A stretch of DNA of 64,000 nucleotides, taken from NCBI RefSeq assembly GCF_003144115.1, contig NW_020312002.1:538859-602858 (forward strand), read 5' to 3'. The translations under genes were made by a program, and so were the position numbers. Source of the DNA: Tilletiopsis washingtonensis (lineage: Eukaryota > Basidiomycota > Exobasidiomycetes > Entylomatales). Below are positions 17,536 through 31,235 of the stretch, piece by piece (the first letter of the stretch is position 1; every line of letters starts with the position of its first letter). The notes beneath the pieces are model-generated. The model was not told the origin of the DNA and did not search any database. It saw nothing but the letters and a program-made list of their open reading frames with translations.

Positions 17536-20500
17536 ATGAAGTTGTGAGTAGAGAGAGGTCCGCTGCCATGCATGAGCAGTGCTCAGACGCACGCCGGCAG
17601 TGCCCGCTACCTCGAGGACAACGCCGTGGTGGAGTGGCGCAAGGCATACATCAACTACCGCGGCCTCAAGAAGCTCAGTGAGCAGCGTAGATGGTGACGA
17701 GCACGGCGGCCGGGCTGACTTGTCCTCTCAGTCAAGCAGGTCCACGCACGGCATCTGGCCCGCACCTCGCTGGCGCTCACGCGCGCGACACCGACGAACA
17801 GCAGCCTCGGCGGCCTGCGGCGCCGCGGCGTGATCCGCAGCGTGAGCGGAGGCTCCGTCGCCGCCCGCACGCCCGACGGCGAGTACGGCACGTTCGGCGA
17901 CAGCGGCACGCCGGGCGACGAGCGCGGGCCCGATGCGCGCAAGCTGCCGGCCATCGACCTCAAGGGCACCGGCCTGCGCCTGCCCGAGCAGCAGAGCCGC
18001 GACTCCGGCGAGCTGACGGCCGCCGAGAGCGACGACACGCGCGTGCCTTGCTCTAGCGGCGAGAGCGCACAGGCGAAGGCGGCGTTCGACCTCGAGGCAC
18101 AGTCGGCCGATGGGCCGCGCAGGCCGCAGCGGAGCCACGTGCGGCAGCACGCCAAGCAGCACCCCAGGCCCGCGCTGCAGGGCAGGCAGGCGGAGAGCAG
18201 TCGGACACAGCCGGCTGAGGATCACGAGGGAGAGGCTTCTGCACCGCACGAGCCCAAGGCGAAGAAGAAGAAGCACAAGAAGGGCGGCAAGAAGGGTGAG
18301 CGTGGGCGGCTCCTGACGGAGGGGTGACGCGCTGACACGTTCGAGCAGGGCAACACCACGTCACTCTGGACCAGCTGGTGCAGCAGAACTTCGACGCCGA
18401 GGAGCAGAAGTTCTTTGGCGCCCTCGATGTCGAGATCGAGCGCGTGCACGACTTCTTCCAGGCGCGCGAGCGCGAGGCTCACGCCAAGCTCGAGCTGCTG
18501 GCACAGCAGCTGCGCGAGCTGGCTGAGCATCGGCGCGAGTACAAGGCACGCCAGCCGCCGGCGGTGGTCAAGCTCAACACTGGGCTGTCACGCATGGGCA
18601 TGAGGCTGCCGCCCGTGCCGCTCCTTGGCGGCAAGAAGCGTGGACAAGAAGCGAGCGAGGGCACGGCTGCGCAGCCGCAGAGCTCCACAGGCAAGAGCAG
18701 TCCGCACAGTGATCCTGCCCACGCCCAAGGCGAGGACAGCCCGCCCACTGTTGAAGGCGACGAGGGCGACCGGCGCCGCTCGCTCGCGCTCAAGCGCATG
18801 CTCGAGACGGGCCACTACGACTCGCACGACGAGGCCGAGGCGCGCGAGGCCATCCGCGCCGCCGCCATGTCGCACGACCCGCAGCGCTACATTGCCGCAC
18901 GCAAGAAGCTCAAGGCGGCCGTGCTCGAGTACTACCGCGGCCTCGAGCTGCTGAAGAACTACCGCGTGCTCAACCGCGTCGGCTTCGGCAAGGTGCTGAA
19001 GAAGTTCGAGAAGGCCACGGGCGTCGCGGGCATCAACGACGCCTGGTTCCACGCCAAGGTCTCGCCCTCCTTCCTGGTGACGTCGGAGAGTGTTGAGAAG
19101 CTCATCGAGGGCACCGAGGAGATCTACACGGCCTACTTTGAGCACGGCGACCGCAAGAAGGCACTGCAGCGCCTGCGCATGACGGCCGGGCCCGAGCACC
19201 ACTCGCACCACATGAGCGTGGCGCGCGCCGGCTTCTATGTCGGCGTGACGCTGTGTGCCGTCGTCGGTGGCATCGTCGAGGCGATGAAGCAGCACAACGG
19301 CTCGCGCACCGACATACCGGCGTGGCGCGAGCTGCTGCGTCTGTACGGCGCCTTCTTCATCGGCTCGCTCTTTGCGCTGCTCTTTGGCTTCAACCTGGCC
19401 ATCTGGCACGCCGCGCGCATCAATGCCACCTTCATCTTCGAGTGGGACGTGCGCACCACGATGGACTACCAGGAGTACTACGAGCTGCCGGCGTTCCTGC
19501 TGCTGCTGCTCTCCGTCTTCTTCTGGGTCTCCTTCGTCAACCCGTTCCCGTCGTCGATCGCGCCGACGACGTGGCCGCTGGTCTGGCTCGTCATCGTTGT
19601 GCTCATCATGATGGACCCGCTGCCCGTCAACCTGCGTCCCAGCCGGCGCTGGTTCGTCTCGAGCATCCTGCGCGTCTTTGGCGCGGGCCTTATCGCCGGC
19701 GTCGAGTTCCGCGACTTCTTCCTCGGCGACGAGCTCAACTCGCTGGCGTGGCCAATTTCGAATCTCTGGTTCATGGGCTGCAGCTACCACAACCACTGGA
19801 CGCCCGGCGTCTGCGAGCCGAACGGCACGTTCTGGACGGCCGCACTGCAGTCGGTGCCCGCGTTCCTGCGTTTCGGGCAGTGTCTGCGGCGTTTCGAGGA
19901 CAGCAAGCGCACGGCCTGGCTGCACATTGCCAATGCGTGCAAGTACGCCGCCGCCATCTTCTACTACTGGTTCTACATCAACTACCGCTACCACGGCAGC
20001 CAGAACCGCGAGCTCATCCTCTTTGCCTTCTTCGCCACGCTCTACTCGCTGGCCACGAGCGCGTGGGACCTGACGATGGACTGGTCGCTGCTGCGTCCGC
20101 GCGCCCGCTGGCCGCTGCTGCGCGACGAGCTGCTCTTTGCGCCGCCGTGCTACTACGTCGCCATCGTGACGAACGTCATGCTGCGCTTCACCTGGGTCAT
20201 CTACCTGCCTGGCGTTGGCGGGCCGGCGTCGCTCACGCTCAAGGCGTTCTTGATTGCACTGCTCGAGATGCTTCGTGAGTTCGTTGCGAGCACGAAGCTT
20301 GGCTCCTTTGGCTGACATGACTCTACAGGCCGCTGCCAGTGGAACATCTACCGTCTGGAGAACGAGCACCTGGTGAGAGCCGATGCCGCGCCGCAGAATG
20401 CAGCAGCCACTGACGCGCCTTTGCGCTGCAGGGCAACGTCGACCAGTACCGCTCGACGCGCGAGGTGCCGCTGCCGTACCGCTTCCAGAAGCCCACCGCC

Positions 20501-23204: not shown

Positions 23205-26200
23205 ATGCCCATCTTCCGGCGCCGCCAGAGCTCCAAGAGCAACGGCAGCAGCAGCGGCAGCCGCAGCGGCATCACCATCGGCGCAAAGGGCGATGCGCGC
23301 CAGTCGGCGCCCGCGGCGCCGGCGTCGTTTGCTCGCCCGCCGCGCGACATTGCCCTGCCGCCCGAGTCGGACTACCGTGAGTGGTGCTGGCGCGTGGAGG
23401 CCGAGAGGAGCGTGCGCTGACCTTGTACCGCTCTGCAGGGTGAGCCTTGACGTGCCGCCACGCTGGTGGCCGCCCTGCTGACATCTCTCGCAGCACCTCG
23501 CTGATCATGCCGCACCTGACGCGCCGCTTCACGCTGCTGCGTGCGCCCGACGGCACCATGGTCACGCCCGACGCCATGCGCGCGCACTTGCGGGCCCAGC
23601 GTGCCAGAGCACGGGCACAGGGCGCGCAGGGCGCCCACTTCCTCACCGAGGCAGAGGAGGACGAGATCATCGACCAGCTGCGGCGCCAGACGCACATGGA
23701 GCGCGACTCGGCCGACGAGGCGCGCGAGGAGGAGCACGCGGCGCAGGGCATCTCAGACGGCTTTGGCGGCATCGACAGCTTCTCCGTGCCCGCGGCCAAG
23801 CCGGCGCCGGAGAGCACGTACGCGAGCACGGACGGCTTCGGCGGCACGGACGGCTTCGGCGGCTGGGGCGCCGCCGTGCAGACGGACCGCAGCAGCGCCA
23901 CGGGAGCCAGCCGGGTGAGCGAGAGCCTGGCGGAGAGCCTCGGCAACCTCGAGACGCCGAGCTACCGCATGGGCGGCGAGGCGGGCCTCTTCAGCGGCAG
24001 AGCTTCCGAGCGCGACAATGCGTACCTGCGCAGCTACGACAAGGGCAGAGCGGCGCAGAACGGCAAGGCATGGGGCACGCCGGCCGAGCAGGCGCCCAGC
24101 ATCATCGAGGAGGAGGCAGAAGAGGGCGAGACCGACGATGAGGGCGCCATGCCGGGCGGCTTCTCCGCTGGTGCATCTCGGCGCGTCTCGCGTCCGCCTG
24201 GTACCGCAGGCTCGGATGGCACGCCCTCGGGCCTGCAGGTGCCCGGCGCTGCGCGCAACGGCCTGCAGCGCCAGTCGCAGCTGCTCAACCTCACGCCCGA
24301 CGCCTTCAAGCGCGTCAGTGCCGCACTCGAGGAGGTGTACGGCACTGTGGCCGGGCGCATCGACGACGGCGAGTTCGACGAAGACGAGGAGGAGGAGGGC
24401 GAGAGCGAGGAGGAGCTCGACGACGGCTCGCAGGGCGGTCGCACGCCGTCTGCCGGCTCGCAGCACGACGGAGACGTCACTGTGGGAGCCTCTGCGCCGG
24501 CGCAGGATGCCATGTCTGGCCGCACGTCCGCTGCTCGGCGGTCTACCGACAGCGACGAGCGCTCGTTCGCCTCGGCGCGCTCAGACGTGCTCGGCTCTGT
24601 CGTGAACGGCGGCCGCGACTCGCGGCACTCGCGCAACCAGAGCGCCGCAAGTGCTGCGTCCAGCTCTTTCTCTCCCAGCGGCGCCGGCGCCGGCACGTCG
24701 ACTATGGCTCCCTCGGACAGCGCCGCAACGATGCGTGCGGGCTCTCCGCCAAGCCCGGCCCAGCTCAGCGTGGCCGATGGCAGCAGCTCGATGACGCTCA
24801 GTCAGGCTGCTCAGCCCGACTCGGAGGCGCCACGCGCAGTCGGCAGCTGGCCTTCGCAGGCCGGCGCGTCCGAGGCACAGCTGCGCGCTCCGGCGTCCGA
24901 GAAGCTCTCCACGGGCTCCGGCCAGAGCACGCTGTCGCAGGCAAGCGACGCCGCTCCGACGCCTCAGGCCGTCTCTCAGTGGCCTAGCCGCGCAGCTGCC
25001 GCATCGCCTCTGCAGCACGCCAGCTCCTCGTCGAGCCTCACCACCTCGCCGCCGCGTCCTCGCGGCGCCGGCGTCGTCTCCATCGACGCGGCCAACGGCC
25101 GGATCAAGCGCGGCCCTGCCTCGCCCACTGCTGAGACGTACGGCAGCCCGAGTCTAGACCGGCCGCTCTTTGGCAGCCTGCGCGACACGCACTCGCCCAA
25201 GGCCGAGTCGCTCAGCGCGAGCAGCTCGCTGCAGCGCGACGCGCGCGAGAGAGCCATGTCGCCCGATGGCTTCCGCGCTTCACCCTCGATGACGCCGCAG
25301 GGCGAGCTGGGCCGCCGGCCCTCAGACTTCCTGCGTCGCCCGTCCAACGGCTCTGGCGCCAATTCCGGCCCTAGCACGCCAGTTCTGTCCGCCAACGCCA
25401 TTGCCGCTCGCTCGCCTCGCTACTTCCCGCCCACGTCGAGCTCCATGCAGAACTACGCGGCGGGCTTCCACTCGCCCGCGCAGCCAAGCGGTGTGCTCTC
25501 CGATGCTGGCGCGCCTCTTGGCACTGCGCAGGACGGGCAGCGTCTAGGAGCCAGCGCTGCTCTGCAGCGCGCGCAAGGAGCATCCTCGCCCGATATGAGC
25601 TACCTCGCCAACTCTCCGGCGGCCCTGAGCTCTTTTGCCGCTCCCGGCTCGCTGCTCTCGCCCGGTACGGCCGGCACAGGAGCAGAGCGAGGGCTGACGT
25701 CGGATGCTGTGAGCGTGCGCAGCGGCGTTAGCGATCTTGCTGGGTCAGACGACGACCGCGAGGATCCTGATGACGTCTGGGCCAAGGTGGCGCGCAACAC
25801 GGAGGCGGCACCGGCGAGCGCATCGCGGCCCATCTCCCACCTGCCGCCAGCAGCAGCTGCGGACCAGCTCGCCGAGTCGGGCATCACGATGGTCGACTTT
25901 GCAGATCTGCAGCAGCAGCTCGTGCGCTCCGCCAGCCAGAAGGGCCACTCGCTGGGCATGCCAGCGCTGCAGACGCGCGGCTCTGCACCTGAGGCGCTCC
26001 AAGAGGCGCCTCCGCTTCCGGGCAAAGCGACTGCCAGCGATCGCCTCTACCACACCAACTCGCAGAGCAGTCTCGCGGGCTCGAACTACGCCTCCGGCAG
26101 CCGCGCCTCTCCGCGCATGACACCGTCTTCGCCGAGCGTGCTCGGCACGGCAAAGCTCGAGAAGGCTCGCGAGCGGGCGCGCAGCATCTCGCAGCGCCAG

Positions 26201-29200
26201 CAAGCCGAGGCAGCGAGCGGGACCGGAAGTCCGCGCACCCCCAACCTCTCTCGGCAGGTCAGCGCTGCCACGCTCGGCGGCGATTCGTTCGCGCCGGCCA
26301 TCACAAGCACGCCGCCGTCGCAGCACGCAGGCGAGAGGACGTACAGCCCGCGCATGCGCTCGGGCAGCCGCGAAGACACGCGCATGGCCCACTCGACGTC
26401 GCAGAGCTCCTTCAAGTCTCCCGTACAGTACGACGTAACGTCGAGCCACCGCCCGACCTCGCCGCCGCCGCGCGCATCGGTCAGTACGCTGCCGTCGCTG
26501 CAGGATCTGAACAACTCCGACTTCCAGGGCATCCCGTCGACGCTCGACGGCAACCGAGGCTCCCTCTCGCTGGCTTCGATCATCGAGGCGACTGCCACTC
26601 GCGCGAGCAATGACTGGCACATGAGCTCGAACTCGAGCTCGAGCTCCCTCAAGCAGTCAGCCGACGCCTCAGTGACGAGTCCTGGCCTCGCCGGCATTGG
26701 CGTCAAGGCGCAGCCGATACCGGAGGAGGACACGGCTGAGTGGGAGGGGCTCTATGGCCGAGGCAGCCCGGCTCTGCCGTACGACAGCCCGCCGGCCATG
26801 CCGCGCAGCCAGTCGCACGACGTCCTTTCTGCTCAGCAGCGCGAGACGGAGCCGCAAGCGGACAGCAAGTCGCCTGAGCTCAACGGCCACCTGCAGTCGC
26901 CGCAGACGCCGCAGACAGCCTGGTCCGACCCCGGCGACCGGCCCGTATGGGGCCAGGCCTCGCACGTCAGCGCCGCGCTTTTGGACGACGTCGAGAGCCA
27001 CGCACGGGCAGCCACACTCGCGCTCAAGGGCACAGACGTGGCAGGGCCCCGTGTGGTCGTTCCGGCACGCTCCAAGTCGCTCAGCAGACGCAAGGGCAAG
27101 AACCTGGCCAAGATCGTGTCGCAGCCCCAGCTCATCCAGACGTCGCAACGCCTCGACCACGCGCAGACCCTGCCGCGCCCCGACGCCACTCTGCTGCGGC
27201 GCGCTGGTACTCCAGCGTACCCGCAATCGCCTGCCGTGCCGCCCCTCCCTGTGCACCCGCTTGGCACACCAGGCTCGCTGGCCGTGGCCGACTACAGCCG
27301 CGGCTCGATTCGAACAGAGCCGTCGGTGCAGCACGGTCGCCGGCCCTCGAGCTCCTTCGGCCACGGCGGTCAGCTGGACCAGGCGGAGAGCACTCCAGGC
27401 AGCGTGCGTTCGTCGCGCACGCCGCCCCGACACGCGTCGTCCGCCGCCGGCACGCCTCAGAGCGAGCGCTCCACCGGAAAGGGCCTGAGCCGCTTCCTCT
27501 CGCGCGTCCGCAACCGCAAGCCGAGCGATAGCGGTCCGTACAGCGCGACGGTGGATCCGTTCCCGTCGTCGATGCCGCAGACGGGCTCATCGCCAAGTCA
27601 CTCGCCCGTCTCGTCGCCGGGCCGTGGTGCGCCTCAGTCCGAGTCTTTCGGCTCGCGCAACGAGGCCTCTTCCTCGCCGCTTCAGCCGTTGCCCATGCAC
27701 AAGCCGTCGCGCAGTACCGACCTGGCCGGGCTGTTCGCGCCCATGCCGTCTTCGCCGACGCTGCCGAGCGCGCCAGAAACCGCGCCGGCACCGCAGATCT
27801 CCGTGCAGCCCGACGCGACAGGCGACGCCGAGCCTGCCTCGTCTGAGACCGCCGAGGCAGAGGCTGCGCAAGAGTCTACGCCTGTCCCGAAGCTCGGCTC
27901 GCCCGCACCGATCCAGGACGCCTGGCAGTCTTCTTCGCCTGCACCTGCTGAGGCCGCGCCGCCGGCACAGGCCGAGGTGTCAGACAATGCGCAGGCGCGC
28001 CCGCCGAAGGTCAAGTCCGCGCGCGACACCATCATCCGGCGCACGATCATCATTCCGACGAGCGAGAGCGTCTTTGACGAGCGGAGAAAGGTGCGTGTCT
28101 GGAGGTTGGGACAGCGCGTGCGATACTCACCCTCGCTTCACAGTCCACGATGTCGAGCACCTCGCGCCGCAAGTCGCGGAGACCTGCTGGAGGCGAGGAG
28201 GCATCTACACCGCTCCCGACCGGCTGGCAGCAGCACCAGAACCGCGACTCGGTCGACTCGCCGGTCTCGGCGACCGTCCCTCTAGACACGCCGTTGACGG
28301 CTGGCGGCGACACGACCGCGCTCATGCCGCCGTCGCCGATGACGAACAGGCAGAGCAGAGCGCAGAGCTCGTACGCCGGCAGCCTGTACGACATGTACAT
28401 CGATGGCGCAGACGACGAGCGCACGCCGCAGTTCGCGCGCCAGTCGACGTTTGGCAACGGGCACGCGCGTGCGTCCATGGGCGCTGCGCTCAACCCCGAA
28501 GGCCGCAGCCACATCGAGGTGACCGAGCGCGCCGACGGCAGTGTCGTGTGGCAGGTGATCGCCGGCCTGGCCGACCGCTCGAGCGCATACAGCGGGTCGT
28601 TCCGAGGTGCAGGCCACTCGCGCCAGGCCAGCGACTCGAGCGAGTTCTCCTTCCGGCCGCGCGACAGCACGTACGAGGACCTGCTGCCTGCCGAAGGAAA
28701 CGGCACACCGGTGCGCAGCTTCGCTGGCCTGACCAACGACGACAGCCGTAGCTTCTTCGCCAGATCGCGCGGCAAGGTCGGGCACCGCAAGAGCTGGTCG
28801 TTCGATGCCTCGACCATGCCTGCGCTGCCGAAGCTGCCCGAGCTTAGCAACGCATCTGGCGCAGTTCCTCACGCGCACACAGAAGACGCGGCAGAGGACG
28901 ACGCCTCACACGATCCTTTCGACATGCCGCCGATCCCGTCGCCGAGTCTCGCCGCGGCCGCCGAGCACCCGACGCCGCGCCAGAAGCAGTACAGCCCGCC
29001 GCTCAACAGCGCCGCGTCGCCTCCGCAGCAGCAGCTGGGCTTCGACATGGCCACGCCGAGCGCCGACGCCAGCGCCACGCGCATCGTCTACACCAACGAC
29101 AACGACCTGGCCATGATGCTCGAGTCGCTCGCGCGCGACAATTCGGCGGCCAAGTTTGAGTTCTCGCGCGTGCCCGGCGGCAACGGGCCTGATGCCCGCT

Positions 29201-29361
29201 CGCTCTCGCGGCCGGTCAGCTCGTGGACCGGCTCGAGCGTCGACTCGGGCGAGGCGCGCACGCAGCGGCTGCGCATCGAGGCCGAGATCTTCTCGCTCCT
29301 CTCGCACGATCAGCGCGGCATGGTCGACCTGCAGGCGGCTGCCGCCTCCATCTCTGCCTGA
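23205..29361 (+). CDS. Large disordered protein of unknown function (1995 residues), with a predicted 1-base exon
   Basis: No function recognised. Exons: 23205-23376, 23439-23439, 23494-28090, 28144-29361. The N-terminus (MPIFRRRQSSKS, then ITIGAKGD) leads through LPPESDYR into TSLIMPHLTRRFTLLRAPDG, which looks like the only conserved folded region. Then come a basic Arg/Ala helix, an acidic stretch, and about 1700 residues rich in Ser, Pro, Ala and Gly. The C-terminus is more ordered (IVYTNDNDLAMMLESLARD, then LRIEAEIFSLLSHDQRGMV). Joining exon 1 (172 bases) directly to the long exon breaks the frame at once. Inserting the single G at 23439 restores it, and 172+1+4597 is divisible by three. 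An alternative start at the ATG at 23505 would avoid exon 1 but discard the matching N-terminus. Phosphorylation-rich scaffold roles are possible but unproven. Confidence 0.82.
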
Positions 29362-29464: not shown

Positions 29465-30720
29465 CTACGCTTCCGCCGCGGGCTGCAGCTCTGGCGTGCG
29501 GCCCTTGATTGCGGCCACAGCATCTTCTGTCGCGATGTCGCTGAGCAGGTGGAAGTACTGGGGGACAGCGTGTCAGCGTTCGCGCAGCCGACGCACAGGA
29601 AGCGACTTGCCTTCTTGATCTGCTCGACACGCTCCGTTTCCGACTTGAGCTGGATGCGCTCCTCGCCGCCGCCGTCGCAGGCTGCTGGCCGCAGCGTGAG
29701 ACCCTGCTGGAACAGCGTACGCAGCCCGATAGTGTTTGGCGGGTAAGGATAGAGCGCTGGCGCGTCCTCGTCGGGCGTCGTCCAGCTGCGTGTGAAGTAG
29801 CACAGCATGATCACGCGGCTGAAGATCGCCTTCTCGGAGCGGCTCGTGTGCGTGTTCATCGCCTGCGAAATGTTCAGCACCCAGACGCGCGCGGCATGGT
29901 GAAACGGCTCACCTCGTAGTCGGTTGGCAGCGTCTCCGTCAGCATGAACACATACTGCGTGAGCCACTCGCCGTCGCCGGTGCGGTGCTGCAGCGCCCAC
30001 ATGTGCTGCGCCGAAGCCGCAAGGTCTGGGATGCAGTGTGGCCCGTCATCGGACTCTTCGAGAGCCGACTGCGGGTGCAGAGTCTGCACTAGCCGATGCG
30101 CCTGTCCCTCGCGTCCTTGCTCCTCATGGCCTTCCCGCAGCAGCAGCGGCCGCAGAGCACATCCGGCGCCGTAGCCCACGTCGCAGTGGTAGAGCACCTC
30201 CGCGCCATTGTCGGTGCTCAGGTGCGACGGCAAGAGAACTAGCACGACCATGTGGCCGAAGCCCGTCAGGCTGGGCTCCTCATTTGCGGGCCGTTCAAGC
30301 ACGCGTCCGGCCGAGGAGAAGCTGCAAGCAGCACAGGTTAGCATGCAGCAGAGCCGCCTGCACCAAGGCAGCGCACCATCTGAAGCCGAGGAAGCGCAGC
30401 ACGTTGAGCAAGACGAGGTTCTGCTGCATGCAGTAGCCGCCGGCGTTGCGCGCCACGAAGCGCTCGAGGCAGTGGTGCGGCTCGATGCGCACCTGGTGCT
30501 CGTGCTCGTAGTGCAGCGACGTGTTCTCGAACGGCATCGTCGTGAGGTGGTGCAGCTGCAGCAGCGCCAGCGTGCGCAGCGTCGGCGGCGGCAGGGCGGC
30601 GGCCCCTGAGGCAGCAGCACTGCCGTCGCCGCTGAGGCCGGGAAAGCCAATATGCGCCAGATAGCGGCGCACCTCCTCCTCGCTGTACACGGACGGCACC
30701 TGGCGCAGCTTCAGCGGCAT
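29465..30720 (-). CDS. Arylamine N-acetyltransferase (NAT) family enzyme
   Basis: Transfers an acetyl or malonyl group from CoA to arylamines; in fungi often a detoxifying enzyme. Minus-strand exons are 30720-30377, 30321-29913, 29862-29611 and 29557-29465; 365 residues, somewhat longer than the usual 280-330. The thiol catalytic triad is in place: Cys97 in NAGGYCMQQN, His138 in TGFGHMVV and Asp162 in YHCDVGYG. N-terminal family features include YLAHIGFPG and LALLQLHHLTTMPFENTSLH. After the triad come the helical region WLTQYVFMLTE and MNTHTSRSEKAIFSRVIMLC. The last intron (29610-29558) begins with GC rather than GT (AAG|GCAAGT). The next gene upstream is divergent, 515 bases away. The start at 30720 is the first ATG of the domain. 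Confidence 0.9.
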
Positions 30721-31235
30721 GGCTGCGACGAGCTTGTCTTGGACCCCTTGAGACGTGTGATGGAAGTGTGCAGCAAGCTGCAAGACGGCTGCCTCGAGAG
30801 CAGCGCCGGCCCGGGCGCGCACGTGCCGCCGGCAGCCGGCGTCCTAACGTCGAGCTGGGGCGCTGTTCCCACGCATGCTCGCGTGCGCCCCGCCGCCCGC
30901 ATGCCGAGTGTTGCTCTGGCCCCACACGATGCAGCCCCGCTGGCGCCCTTCATTCTATTCCGCCTTGGGAGTGCTCATATGCTGGAAGAGGCTCGCAAGC
31001 CGAGAGTGACTGCCTCTGTTGCTGTGCGCTGCCGGACCGGCATGCGCAGCACAGCACCGCCCCTTATAAGGCAGCGGCCGCTCTCACCCTCGCTGCCTCT
31101 CGACCGCCATCCCTCGCCTCGCGCGAACCGGCATCAGCACCACCCACCTGCTCCTCCACTGCCTCGCCGCCTCGCTGCCTCGCCGGCGAACGCTCTCACA
31201 CACTCGACACCTCCACCACCACCGCTCTGCCGACC
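30721..31235. other. Divergent promoter, NAT / small unknown gene
   Basis: 515 bases between two divergent start codons. It contains a clear TATA box for the rightward gene at 31064 and C/T-rich sequence after it. Confidence 0.6.
31064..31069 (+). promoter_or_regulatory. TATA box of the small gene at 31236
   Basis: TTATAA inside CCCCTTATAAGGCAGC, 167 bases before the start codon, followed by C/T-rich sequence. One of the few A/T core elements in this GC-rich window. Confidence 0.5.

What the first reader, a model, noticed from the sequence alone, without database searches (positions are those of the whole stretch)
23377..23493. Predicted single-nucleotide exon in the 1995-residue gene
Exon 1 ends GACTACC with donor GTGAGT at 23377. 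An acceptor CTCTGCAG ends at 23438, one G follows (23439), and a new donor GTGAGC begins at 23440, ending CTCTCGCAG at 23493. Both introns (62 and 54 bases) contain a CTGAC branch-like site. Only with the single G does the Arg codon C-G-C form and the frame run on as TSLIMPHLTRRF for 1500 codons; direct joining gives an early stop. One-base exons are very rare; I know of one reported in Arabidopsis and cannot name a fungal case. A stepwise (recursive-like) removal of one 117-base interval is the alternative view.
Basis: partly seen in the sequence, partly recalled or inferred. Interest (0 to 1): 0.85.

Follow-up and report, generated by a model that had tools for sequence, protein, structure and literature searches.

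The report
Predicted one-letter exon in fungal gene
A fungal gene appears to keep a single DNA letter as a whole exon between two short introns; relatives' proteins show that exactly this letter is needed, so the prediction is very likely right, but one-letter exons have been described before in plants and in another fungus.

Summary
Confirmed at the stated coordinates: exon 1 (23205-23376), intron of 62 nt, G at 23439, intron of 54 nt, exon 23494-28090, intron of 53 nt, last exon to 29361; 1995 codons. The one-nucleotide exon is strongly supported. In homologues from smut-type fungi and one agaricomycete, Arg stands directly before [TQS]SLI in 21 of 21 that keep a comparable upstream stretch, and only the single G rebuilds that Arg (C-G-C). 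Both introns look ordinary for this genome in length, donor, branch site and acceptor; one ~117-nt intron would be unusual (3 of 66 sampled reach 100 nt). 'Only with the single G' is too strong: nine single GT-AG introns also keep the frame, but each alters the conserved motif. The downstream ATG is at 23507, not 23505. Main untested rival: a G missing from the assembly at the exon-1 border. Single-nucleotide exons are known: plant APC11 and VPS55 and, since February 2026, Fusarium CYP621A with the same AGGGT core and middle-of-codon placement. This would be a second fungal gene; the partial listings searched showed no basidiomycete nuclear case. No RNA evidence was available.

The parts
23205..23376 (+). 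Exon 1 (172 nt, 57 codons plus the C of the split Arg codon); ends LPPESDY-C
   Evidence: Translation; its end with the completed Arg (LPPESDYR) is identical in 4 of 31 homologues; only its frame 0 scores as coding (+13.9 against -15.3 and -6.4)
23377..23438 (+). Intron 1, 62 nt, GTGAGT...CTCTGCAG, branch-like CTGAC at 23417-23421 (A to AG end 19 nt)
   Evidence: donor at percentile 0.58 and acceptor at 0.97 of 66 sampled introns
23439..23439 (+). Single-nucleotide exon G, middle base of the Arg codon C-G-C
   Evidence: Frame and conserved Arg
23440..23493 (+). Intron 2, 54 nt, GTGAGC...CTCTCGCAG, branch-like CTGAC at 23478-23482 (A to AG end 13 nt)
   Evidence: donor at percentile 0.44 in place (0.27 after removal of intron 1), acceptor at 0.85
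23494..28090 (+). Long exon: last base of the Arg codon, then 1532 codons; begins C-ACC-TCG (TSLIMPHLTRRF)
   Evidence: 29 homologues found with its first 120 codons
28091..28143 (+). Last intron, 53 nt, GTGCGT...CACAG, phase 0
   Evidence: donor at percentile 0.98 and acceptor at 0.27, only a CTCAC branch-like site
28144..29361 (+). Last exon with stop codon TGA at 29359-29361
   Evidence: no Pfam family at E up to 0.01

Best explanation
The gene carries a true single-nucleotide exon. Two ordinary short U2-type introns (62 and 54 nt) lie one base apart. Each is recognised across itself (intron definition), and they are removed one after the other, because the acceptor of the first and the donor of the second overlap and cannot both be occupied at once. 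The G between them is kept as the middle base of an Arg codon in a conserved motif near the N-terminus of a large uncharacterised protein, found in Ustilaginomycotina and at least one agaricomycete. Likely origin: a phase-2 intron after C-G lost its last exon base, or a second intron was gained one base upstream of an existing donor, and the AG-G-GT inside the interval keeps the frame. Shown here: coordinates, frame, conserved Arg, typical splice signals. Inferred: that the RNA is spliced so, the order of steps, the origin.
For: Frame: 1995 open codons with the G; stops at codons 59-72 when the G is skipped or either or both introns are kept. Homologues: 31 found in two searches; 23 of 31 have at least 8 residues before [TSQ]SLI; Arg directly before it in 22 of 23, and in 21 of 21 once two with unlike upstream residues (P0002, P0013) are set aside; LPPESDYR identical in 4. 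The hits include Tilletia (NFR-SSLI) and the agaricomycete Thelephora (DFR-TSLI). Splice signals: both donors and both acceptors lie within the range of 66 sampled introns, with CTGAC 19 and 13 nt from the acceptor end (sample 11-32 nt; CTGAC in 57 of 66). Lengths 62 and 54 against a sample median of 57.5, middle half 54-65; 3 of 66 reach 100 nt. Rarity: CTGAC-N(5-20)-CAG-N-GTGAG was counted 18 times on both strands of 18.7 Mb (9 for the reversed control), 3 of the 18 with G as the single base, this site included; of 114 YAG-N-GTRNG sites in 264 kb only this one has both intron halves.
Against: No RNA read was available. No genomic DNA of a relative was available (no relative in genome contigs, which holds bacteria and archaea, nor in viral contigs), so conservation of the exon itself is untested. 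Eight of 31 homologue models begin at or after the MPHL methionine, among them the best hit, Ceraceosorus guamensis: an annotation failure at the same place or a real downstream start. One homologue (P0002) has Ser, not Arg, before TSLI; I read it as intron read-through, unproven. The homologues are mostly Ustilaginaceae-like and not independent, and where a model has an intron here the junction may itself be a prediction. A first scan for one-nucleotide exons with a stricter coding threshold missed this locus, since the start of the long exon scores only +5.7 over 40 codons. The intron sample was seeded with GT[AG]NG, YAG and CT[AG]A[CT], so those frequencies are partly built in.
Confidence: 0.87

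Rival explanations
1. Assembly or sequencing error: one G is missing at the exon-1 border. The true sequence would be C-C-G|GTGAGT, and one 117-nt phase-2 intron (23377-23493) would be removed.
For: It would give the same mature mRNA and the same conserved Arg. Homologue P0002 appears to read through an intron end in the same phase as the read-through here (RS-TSLIMPHL), compatible with a phase-2 intron at this place in a relative.
Against: It leaves the internal branch site, acceptor, G and donor as coincidence: 3 CTGAC...CAG-G-GTGAG sites counted on both strands of the 18.7-Mb genome, and 1 of 114 YAG-N-GTRNG sites in 264 kb with both intron halves. A 117-nt intron is long here (3 of 66 at 100 nt or more). 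The 1532 codons after it show no frame break.
Confidence: 0.07
2. A different single intron is used and the protein differs slightly: donor at 23381 (DYRD-TSLI) or 23384 (DYREC-TSLI) with acceptor 23493, or intron 23377-23444 with a 17-residue insertion (DYPLTCRHAGGRPADISRSTSLI).
For: All three keep the reading frame.
Against: Donors 23381 and 23384 (scores -9.4 and -1.2) lie below all 66 sampled donors (minimum 1.2), acceptor 23444 (-6.1) below all 66 acceptors (minimum 3.2). Each separates Arg from TSLI or removes it, while Arg adjoins [TQS]SLI in 21 of 21 comparable homologues. The other six frame-keeping introns have GTC or GTT donors (four) or delete MPHL (two); donors 23394 and 23412 and acceptor 23599 were not scored.
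Confidence: 0.03
3. Exon 1 is not part of the gene; translation starts at the ATG at 23507 (MPHLTRRF), and the double intron is non-coding.
For: Seven of 31 homologue models start at exactly this methionine, including Ceraceosorus guamensis.
Against: Exon 1 codes for LPPESDYR, seen in homologues, and for a start like theirs (MPIFRRR here; MPNPFKRR, MLSNPFRRK, MINPFKKR there), and it scores as coding in that frame only.
Confidence: 0.03

Closest known systems
Fusarium CYP621A single-nucleotide exon (PMC12940212, Int J Mol Sci 2026; parts 1 and 2 of 3 read)
   Same: Fungal nuclear gene; AGGGT core; upstream phase-1 and downstream phase-2 boundaries; the G is the middle base of a codon in a conserved motif; a long interval for the species (139 nt against a median of 56 in F. 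graminearum).
   Different: Ascomycete P450 gene, reported in 20 orthologues (the text also speaks of 24 genes) and backed by 18 RNA reads from two species; here an unrelated gene in one genome related to Ustilaginomycotina, without RNA evidence.
Arabidopsis APC11 single-nucleotide exon (PMC4674806, Sci Rep 2015; parts 1 and 2 of 3 read)
   Same: One retained nucleotide inside what was annotated as the first intron; the authors suggest intron definition combined with stepwise removal.
   Different: The base is A; longer interval (422 nt); shown by cDNA and by changing the base in protoplasts; plant.
1-nt microexons of plant APC11 and VPS55 (PMC8831610, Nat Commun 2022; passages read)
   Same: A good donor follows the 1-nt exon; missed annotation gives shorter or different N-termini, as may have happened in the MPHL-starting models here.
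   Different: Conserved across land plants; RNA-seq and RT-PCR support.
Spliceosomal twin introns, [D1,2] stwintrons (PMC12403724, Microbiol Spectr 2025; abstract and outline read)
   Same: Two adjoining U2 introns in a fungus removed in consecutive reactions.
   Different: By the definition in the abstract an internal intron splits a splice signal of the external one; here both donors and both acceptors are intact and one base is kept.
Recursive splicing at zero-length exons (ratchet points; recalled; passages of PMC13149111 on recursive splicing)
   Same: Stepwise removal, acceptor directly beside donor.
   Different: Described for very long introns, with no base kept (the latter recalled); here introns of about 60 nt and one base kept.

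Membership tests
Single-nucleotide exon (APC11 / VPS55 / CYP621A kind) | Exactly one nucleotide flanked by AG on the left and GT on the right | tested here: met
   CAG-G-GTGAGC at 23436-23445
Single-nucleotide exon (APC11 / VPS55 / CYP621A kind) | Reading frame and conserved protein require that nucleotide | tested here: met
   Frame; Arg in 21 of 21 comparable homologues, 22 of 23 with any upstream stretch. The frame alone does not require it (nine other introns); frame and motif together do
Single-nucleotide exon (APC11 / VPS55 / CYP621A kind) | Both flanking introns have ordinary splice and branch signals for the species | tested here: met
   (66-intron sample, seeded by consensus)
Single-nucleotide exon (APC11 / VPS55 / CYP621A kind) | The nucleotide is present in the spliced RNA | not testable with these tools
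   No RNA reads available
Single-nucleotide exon (APC11 / VPS55 / CYP621A kind) | The same structure in the DNA of related species | tested here: inconclusive
   No relative's DNA found; the two collections scanned hold bacteria and archaea, and viruses; only proteins were available
Stwintron | A donor, branch site or acceptor of an external intron is interrupted by an internal intron | tested here: not met
   Both donors (GTGAGT, GTGAGC), both CTGAC sites and both CAG acceptors are uninterrupted
Recursive splicing, zero-length exon | Acceptor abuts donor (AG|GT) and no base is kept | tested here: not met
   AG|G|GT; removing all 117 bases gives a stop at codon 61

The most novel reading that the evidence does not exclude
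Single-nucleotide exons arise repeatedly and independently in fungi by one route: a base is lost at an intron border inside a conserved motif, and an AG-G-GT already inside or gained in the interval restores it. This locus and Fusarium CYP621A share the AGGGT core, the phase-1 to phase-2 boundaries and the middle-of-codon position. In this gene the splice choice may also act as a check on expression: of the five basic outcomes at these four sites only one is productive, and the other four (G skipped, either intron kept, both kept) stop by codon 72.
Probability: 0.3. Interest if true: 0.65.

Novelty: new member of a known kind. Interest (0 to 1): 0.5.

Why it matters
If confirmed it would be a second fungal gene with a one-nucleotide exon and, as far as the listings seen here show, the first nuclear one in a basidiomycete, pointing to a recurrent event rather than a curiosity of one gene family. 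It also shows how gene models may fail: seven homologue models start just after this junction. The short introns make it a compact test of how two overlapping splice sites are used in turn.

Tried and rejected
Relatives' DNA: scans of genome contigs (bacteria and archaea) and viral contigs with the conserved N-terminus gave no relative, as could be expected of those collections. Function: no Pfam family in the long exon, in P0001 or in P0008 at E up to 1, nor in the last exon at E up to 0.01; the gene stays uncharacterised. Intron duplication as origin: introns 1 and 2 align weakly (47 of 1000 shuffles reach the whole score, 37 of 1000 the core score), too weak to claim. Another copy of intron 1, or of intron 2 with short flanks, was not found in the own genome at E up to 1 (the tool skips very common words), so a recently copied intron is not supported. 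Other one-nucleotide exons in this genome: among the 18 motif loci, one besides this gene passed the loose structural filter (L022, minus strand of the locus), with coding scores below zero on both sides, rejected. A first scan with a stricter coding threshold found none, missing even the present case, and was replaced. Most of the genome was not scanned. Non-canonical single introns (GT-CA 23377-23492 or TG-AG 23378-23493) would give the same mRNA; set aside because such ends are not standard for U2 introns (established knowledge, not tested). Homologues dropped before the 21-of-21 count: 8 of 31 without upstream sequence, P0002 (Ser before TSLI, apparent intron read-through) and P0013 (Arg, but unlike upstream residues). 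The second homologue search scored only the 7983 candidates sharing most words.

Full report
WHAT IS THERE. Exon 1 runs from ATG 23205 to 23376 and ends ...GAC TAC C. GTGAGT starts at 23377 and CTCTGCAG ends at 23438 (62 nt); one G follows at 23439; GTGAGC starts at 23440 and CTCTCGCAG ends at 23493 (54 nt). The next exon reads C ACC TCG CTG ATC ATG... to 28090; a 53-nt phase-0 intron (28091-28143) and a last exon to TGA 29359-29361 complete a frame of 1995 codons. The downstream ATG is at 23507, not 23505.

IS THE SINGLE G NEEDED? Skipping the G gives a stop at codon 61, keeping intron 2 alone a stop at codon 59, keeping intron 1 or both introns a stop at codon 72. The statement that only the G keeps the frame is too strong: nine single GT-AG introns also leave an open frame. 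They use poor splice sites, or remove or add residues, or both. Of the rival sites scored, donors 23303, 23324, 23327, 23366, 23381 and 23384 and acceptor 23444 score below every one of the 66 sampled introns; donors 23394 and 23412 and acceptor 23599 were not scored, but introns that use them delete MPHL.

HOMOLOGUES. The first 120 codons of the long exon found 29 proteins among 412 candidates. A profile of 10 of them found 31, the same 29 and two more (only the 7983 candidates sharing most words were scored). The named ones belong to Ustilaginomycotina genera (names as shown: Ceraceosorus, Meira, Jaminaea, Sympodiomycopsis, Ustilago, Sporisorium, Thecaphora, Testicularia, Tilletiaria, Tilletia and others), except the agaricomycete Thelephora; the placement of the genera is established knowledge, not a call. 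Several have no name. Of the 31, 23 have at least 8 residues before the [TSQ]SLI motif, and 22 of these 23 have Arg directly before it. The exception, P0002, reads ...CPRS-TSLIMPHL, which resembles the intron read-through in our own frame (...DISRS-TSLIMPHL). P0013 has Arg but unlike residues before it. Setting both aside, 21 of 21 have Arg. Of these, 20 read LP[PD]...[YF]R and one (P0027) LPPAAR; LPPESDYR, identical to our exon-1 end plus the rebuilt codon, is in 4, two of them near-relatives of each other (P0003 and P0004, 84% identical). The eight remaining proteins start at or after MPHL and say nothing about the junction. The product predicted with the G (LPPESDYRTSLIMPHLTRRF) is thus what relatives encode at the joint. 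This is the strongest evidence.

ARE THE TWO INTRONS ORDINARY? From 200 kb of this genome (20 stretches of 10 kb) plus the 64-kb window I took 66 introns by a consensus-seeded, coding-score search; none is in the present locus. Median length 57.5 nt, middle half 54-65 nt, 3 of 66 at 100 nt or more; GTGAGT in 24, GTGAGC in 9; CAG acceptors in 64. The donors at 23377 and 23440 rank at 0.58 and 0.44 of the sample, the acceptors at 23438 and 23493 at 0.97 and 0.85, and the CTGAC sites lie 19 and 13 nt from the acceptor ends (sample 11-32). The seed imposed part of the consensus, so the ranks are a check of normality and not an independent discovery.

CHANCE. CTGAC-N(5-20)-CAG-N-GTGAG was counted 18 times on both strands of 18.7 Mb (reversed control 9), 3 of the 18 with G in the single position, this locus included. 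In 264 kb, both strands, 114 YAG-N-GTRNG sites occur; one, this one, is flanked on both sides by intron-like halves with open frames. A stricter version of the scan missed it. The window was chosen for this feature, so the rate is not an estimate of frequency.

HOW IT MOST LIKELY WORKS. The two introns are short and can be recognised by intron definition, so no exon-sized platform is needed. Acceptor and donor overlap at the G and cannot be occupied together, so removal must be stepwise; this is inference, in line with the discussion in PMC4674806. The G stays in the mRNA whichever intron goes first: CCG|GTGAGC after removal of intron 1 is a donor within the sampled range (percentile 0.27), and CTCTGCAG|G remains after removal of intron 2. 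The origin is open. Nelson and Syed propose for Fusarium that a base lost at an intron border is made good by a cryptic AGGGT (PMC12940212); the same would fit here, as would gain of intron 1 one base upstream of an older phase-2 donor. No other copy of either intron was found in the genome, and the two are only weakly alike.

RIVALS. The serious one is a G missing from the assembly at the border of exon 1, which would turn the interval into one phase-2 intron and give the same protein. It cannot be excluded without reads, but it leaves the well-formed internal acceptor, G and donor and the double length as coincidences. Shifted single introns and a start at 23507 are disfavoured by conserved residues in exon 1 and at the junction.

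WHAT IS KNOWN. Searches of the paper library for single-nucleotide exon, one-nucleotide exon, 1-nt exon, 1-nt microexon, 1-bp exon, and microexon with fungal terms (the listings showed 30 of 74 and 20 of 428 papers) list, among others, a plant case (APC11, PMC4674806, parts 1 and 2 of 3 read), plant APC11 and VPS55 (PMC8831610, passages read), a placozoan mitochondrial case (PMC5436844, listing only), two fungal mitochondrial-genome papers that hold the term (PMC12308204, PMC8208691, listing only) and a fungal nuclear case published in February 2026 (PMC12940212, parts 1 and 2 of 3 read). I saw no basidiomycete nuclear case in what was listed; most subscription papers are not held. The locus is therefore a new member of a known, very small kind. 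It is not a stwintron, since no splice signal is interrupted (definition from the abstract of PMC12403724), and not zero-length recursive splicing, since a base is kept.

VERDICT. Observation confirmed, with two small corrections; interpretation supported by homologues and splice-site statistics; RNA proof and relatives' DNA lacking.

Noticed in passing
23377-23444: An acceptor inside the second donor (GGTGAG, ending 23444) would leave an in-frame isoform with about 17 extra residues and no need for intron 2; the site scores below all 66 sampled acceptors, but it is a specific isoform to look for in RNA.
   Followed up: partly
P0001, P0006, P0009, P0010, P0016, P0024, P0029: Seven homologue models begin exactly at the methionine of MPHL, just after this junction; some may be truncated because of an unresolved intron or microexon at the same place.
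   Followed up: no
18336-20315: The upstream neighbour on the + strand encodes an SPX-EXS protein (Pfam PF03105 from profile position 130 on, and PF03124).
   Followed up: partly
30298-30843: An open frame downstream on the - strand matches the first 69 of 240 positions of the N-acetyltransferase family Acetyltransf_2 (PF00797); the rest may lie in further exons.
   Followed up: partly
28144-29361: The C-terminal part carries a stretch largely invariant in the ten aligned homologues (HIEVTERADGSVVWQVIAGL), with a similar stretch in Thelephora, yet the last exon matches no Pfam family: possibly an unnamed conserved basidiomycete domain.
   Followed up: no
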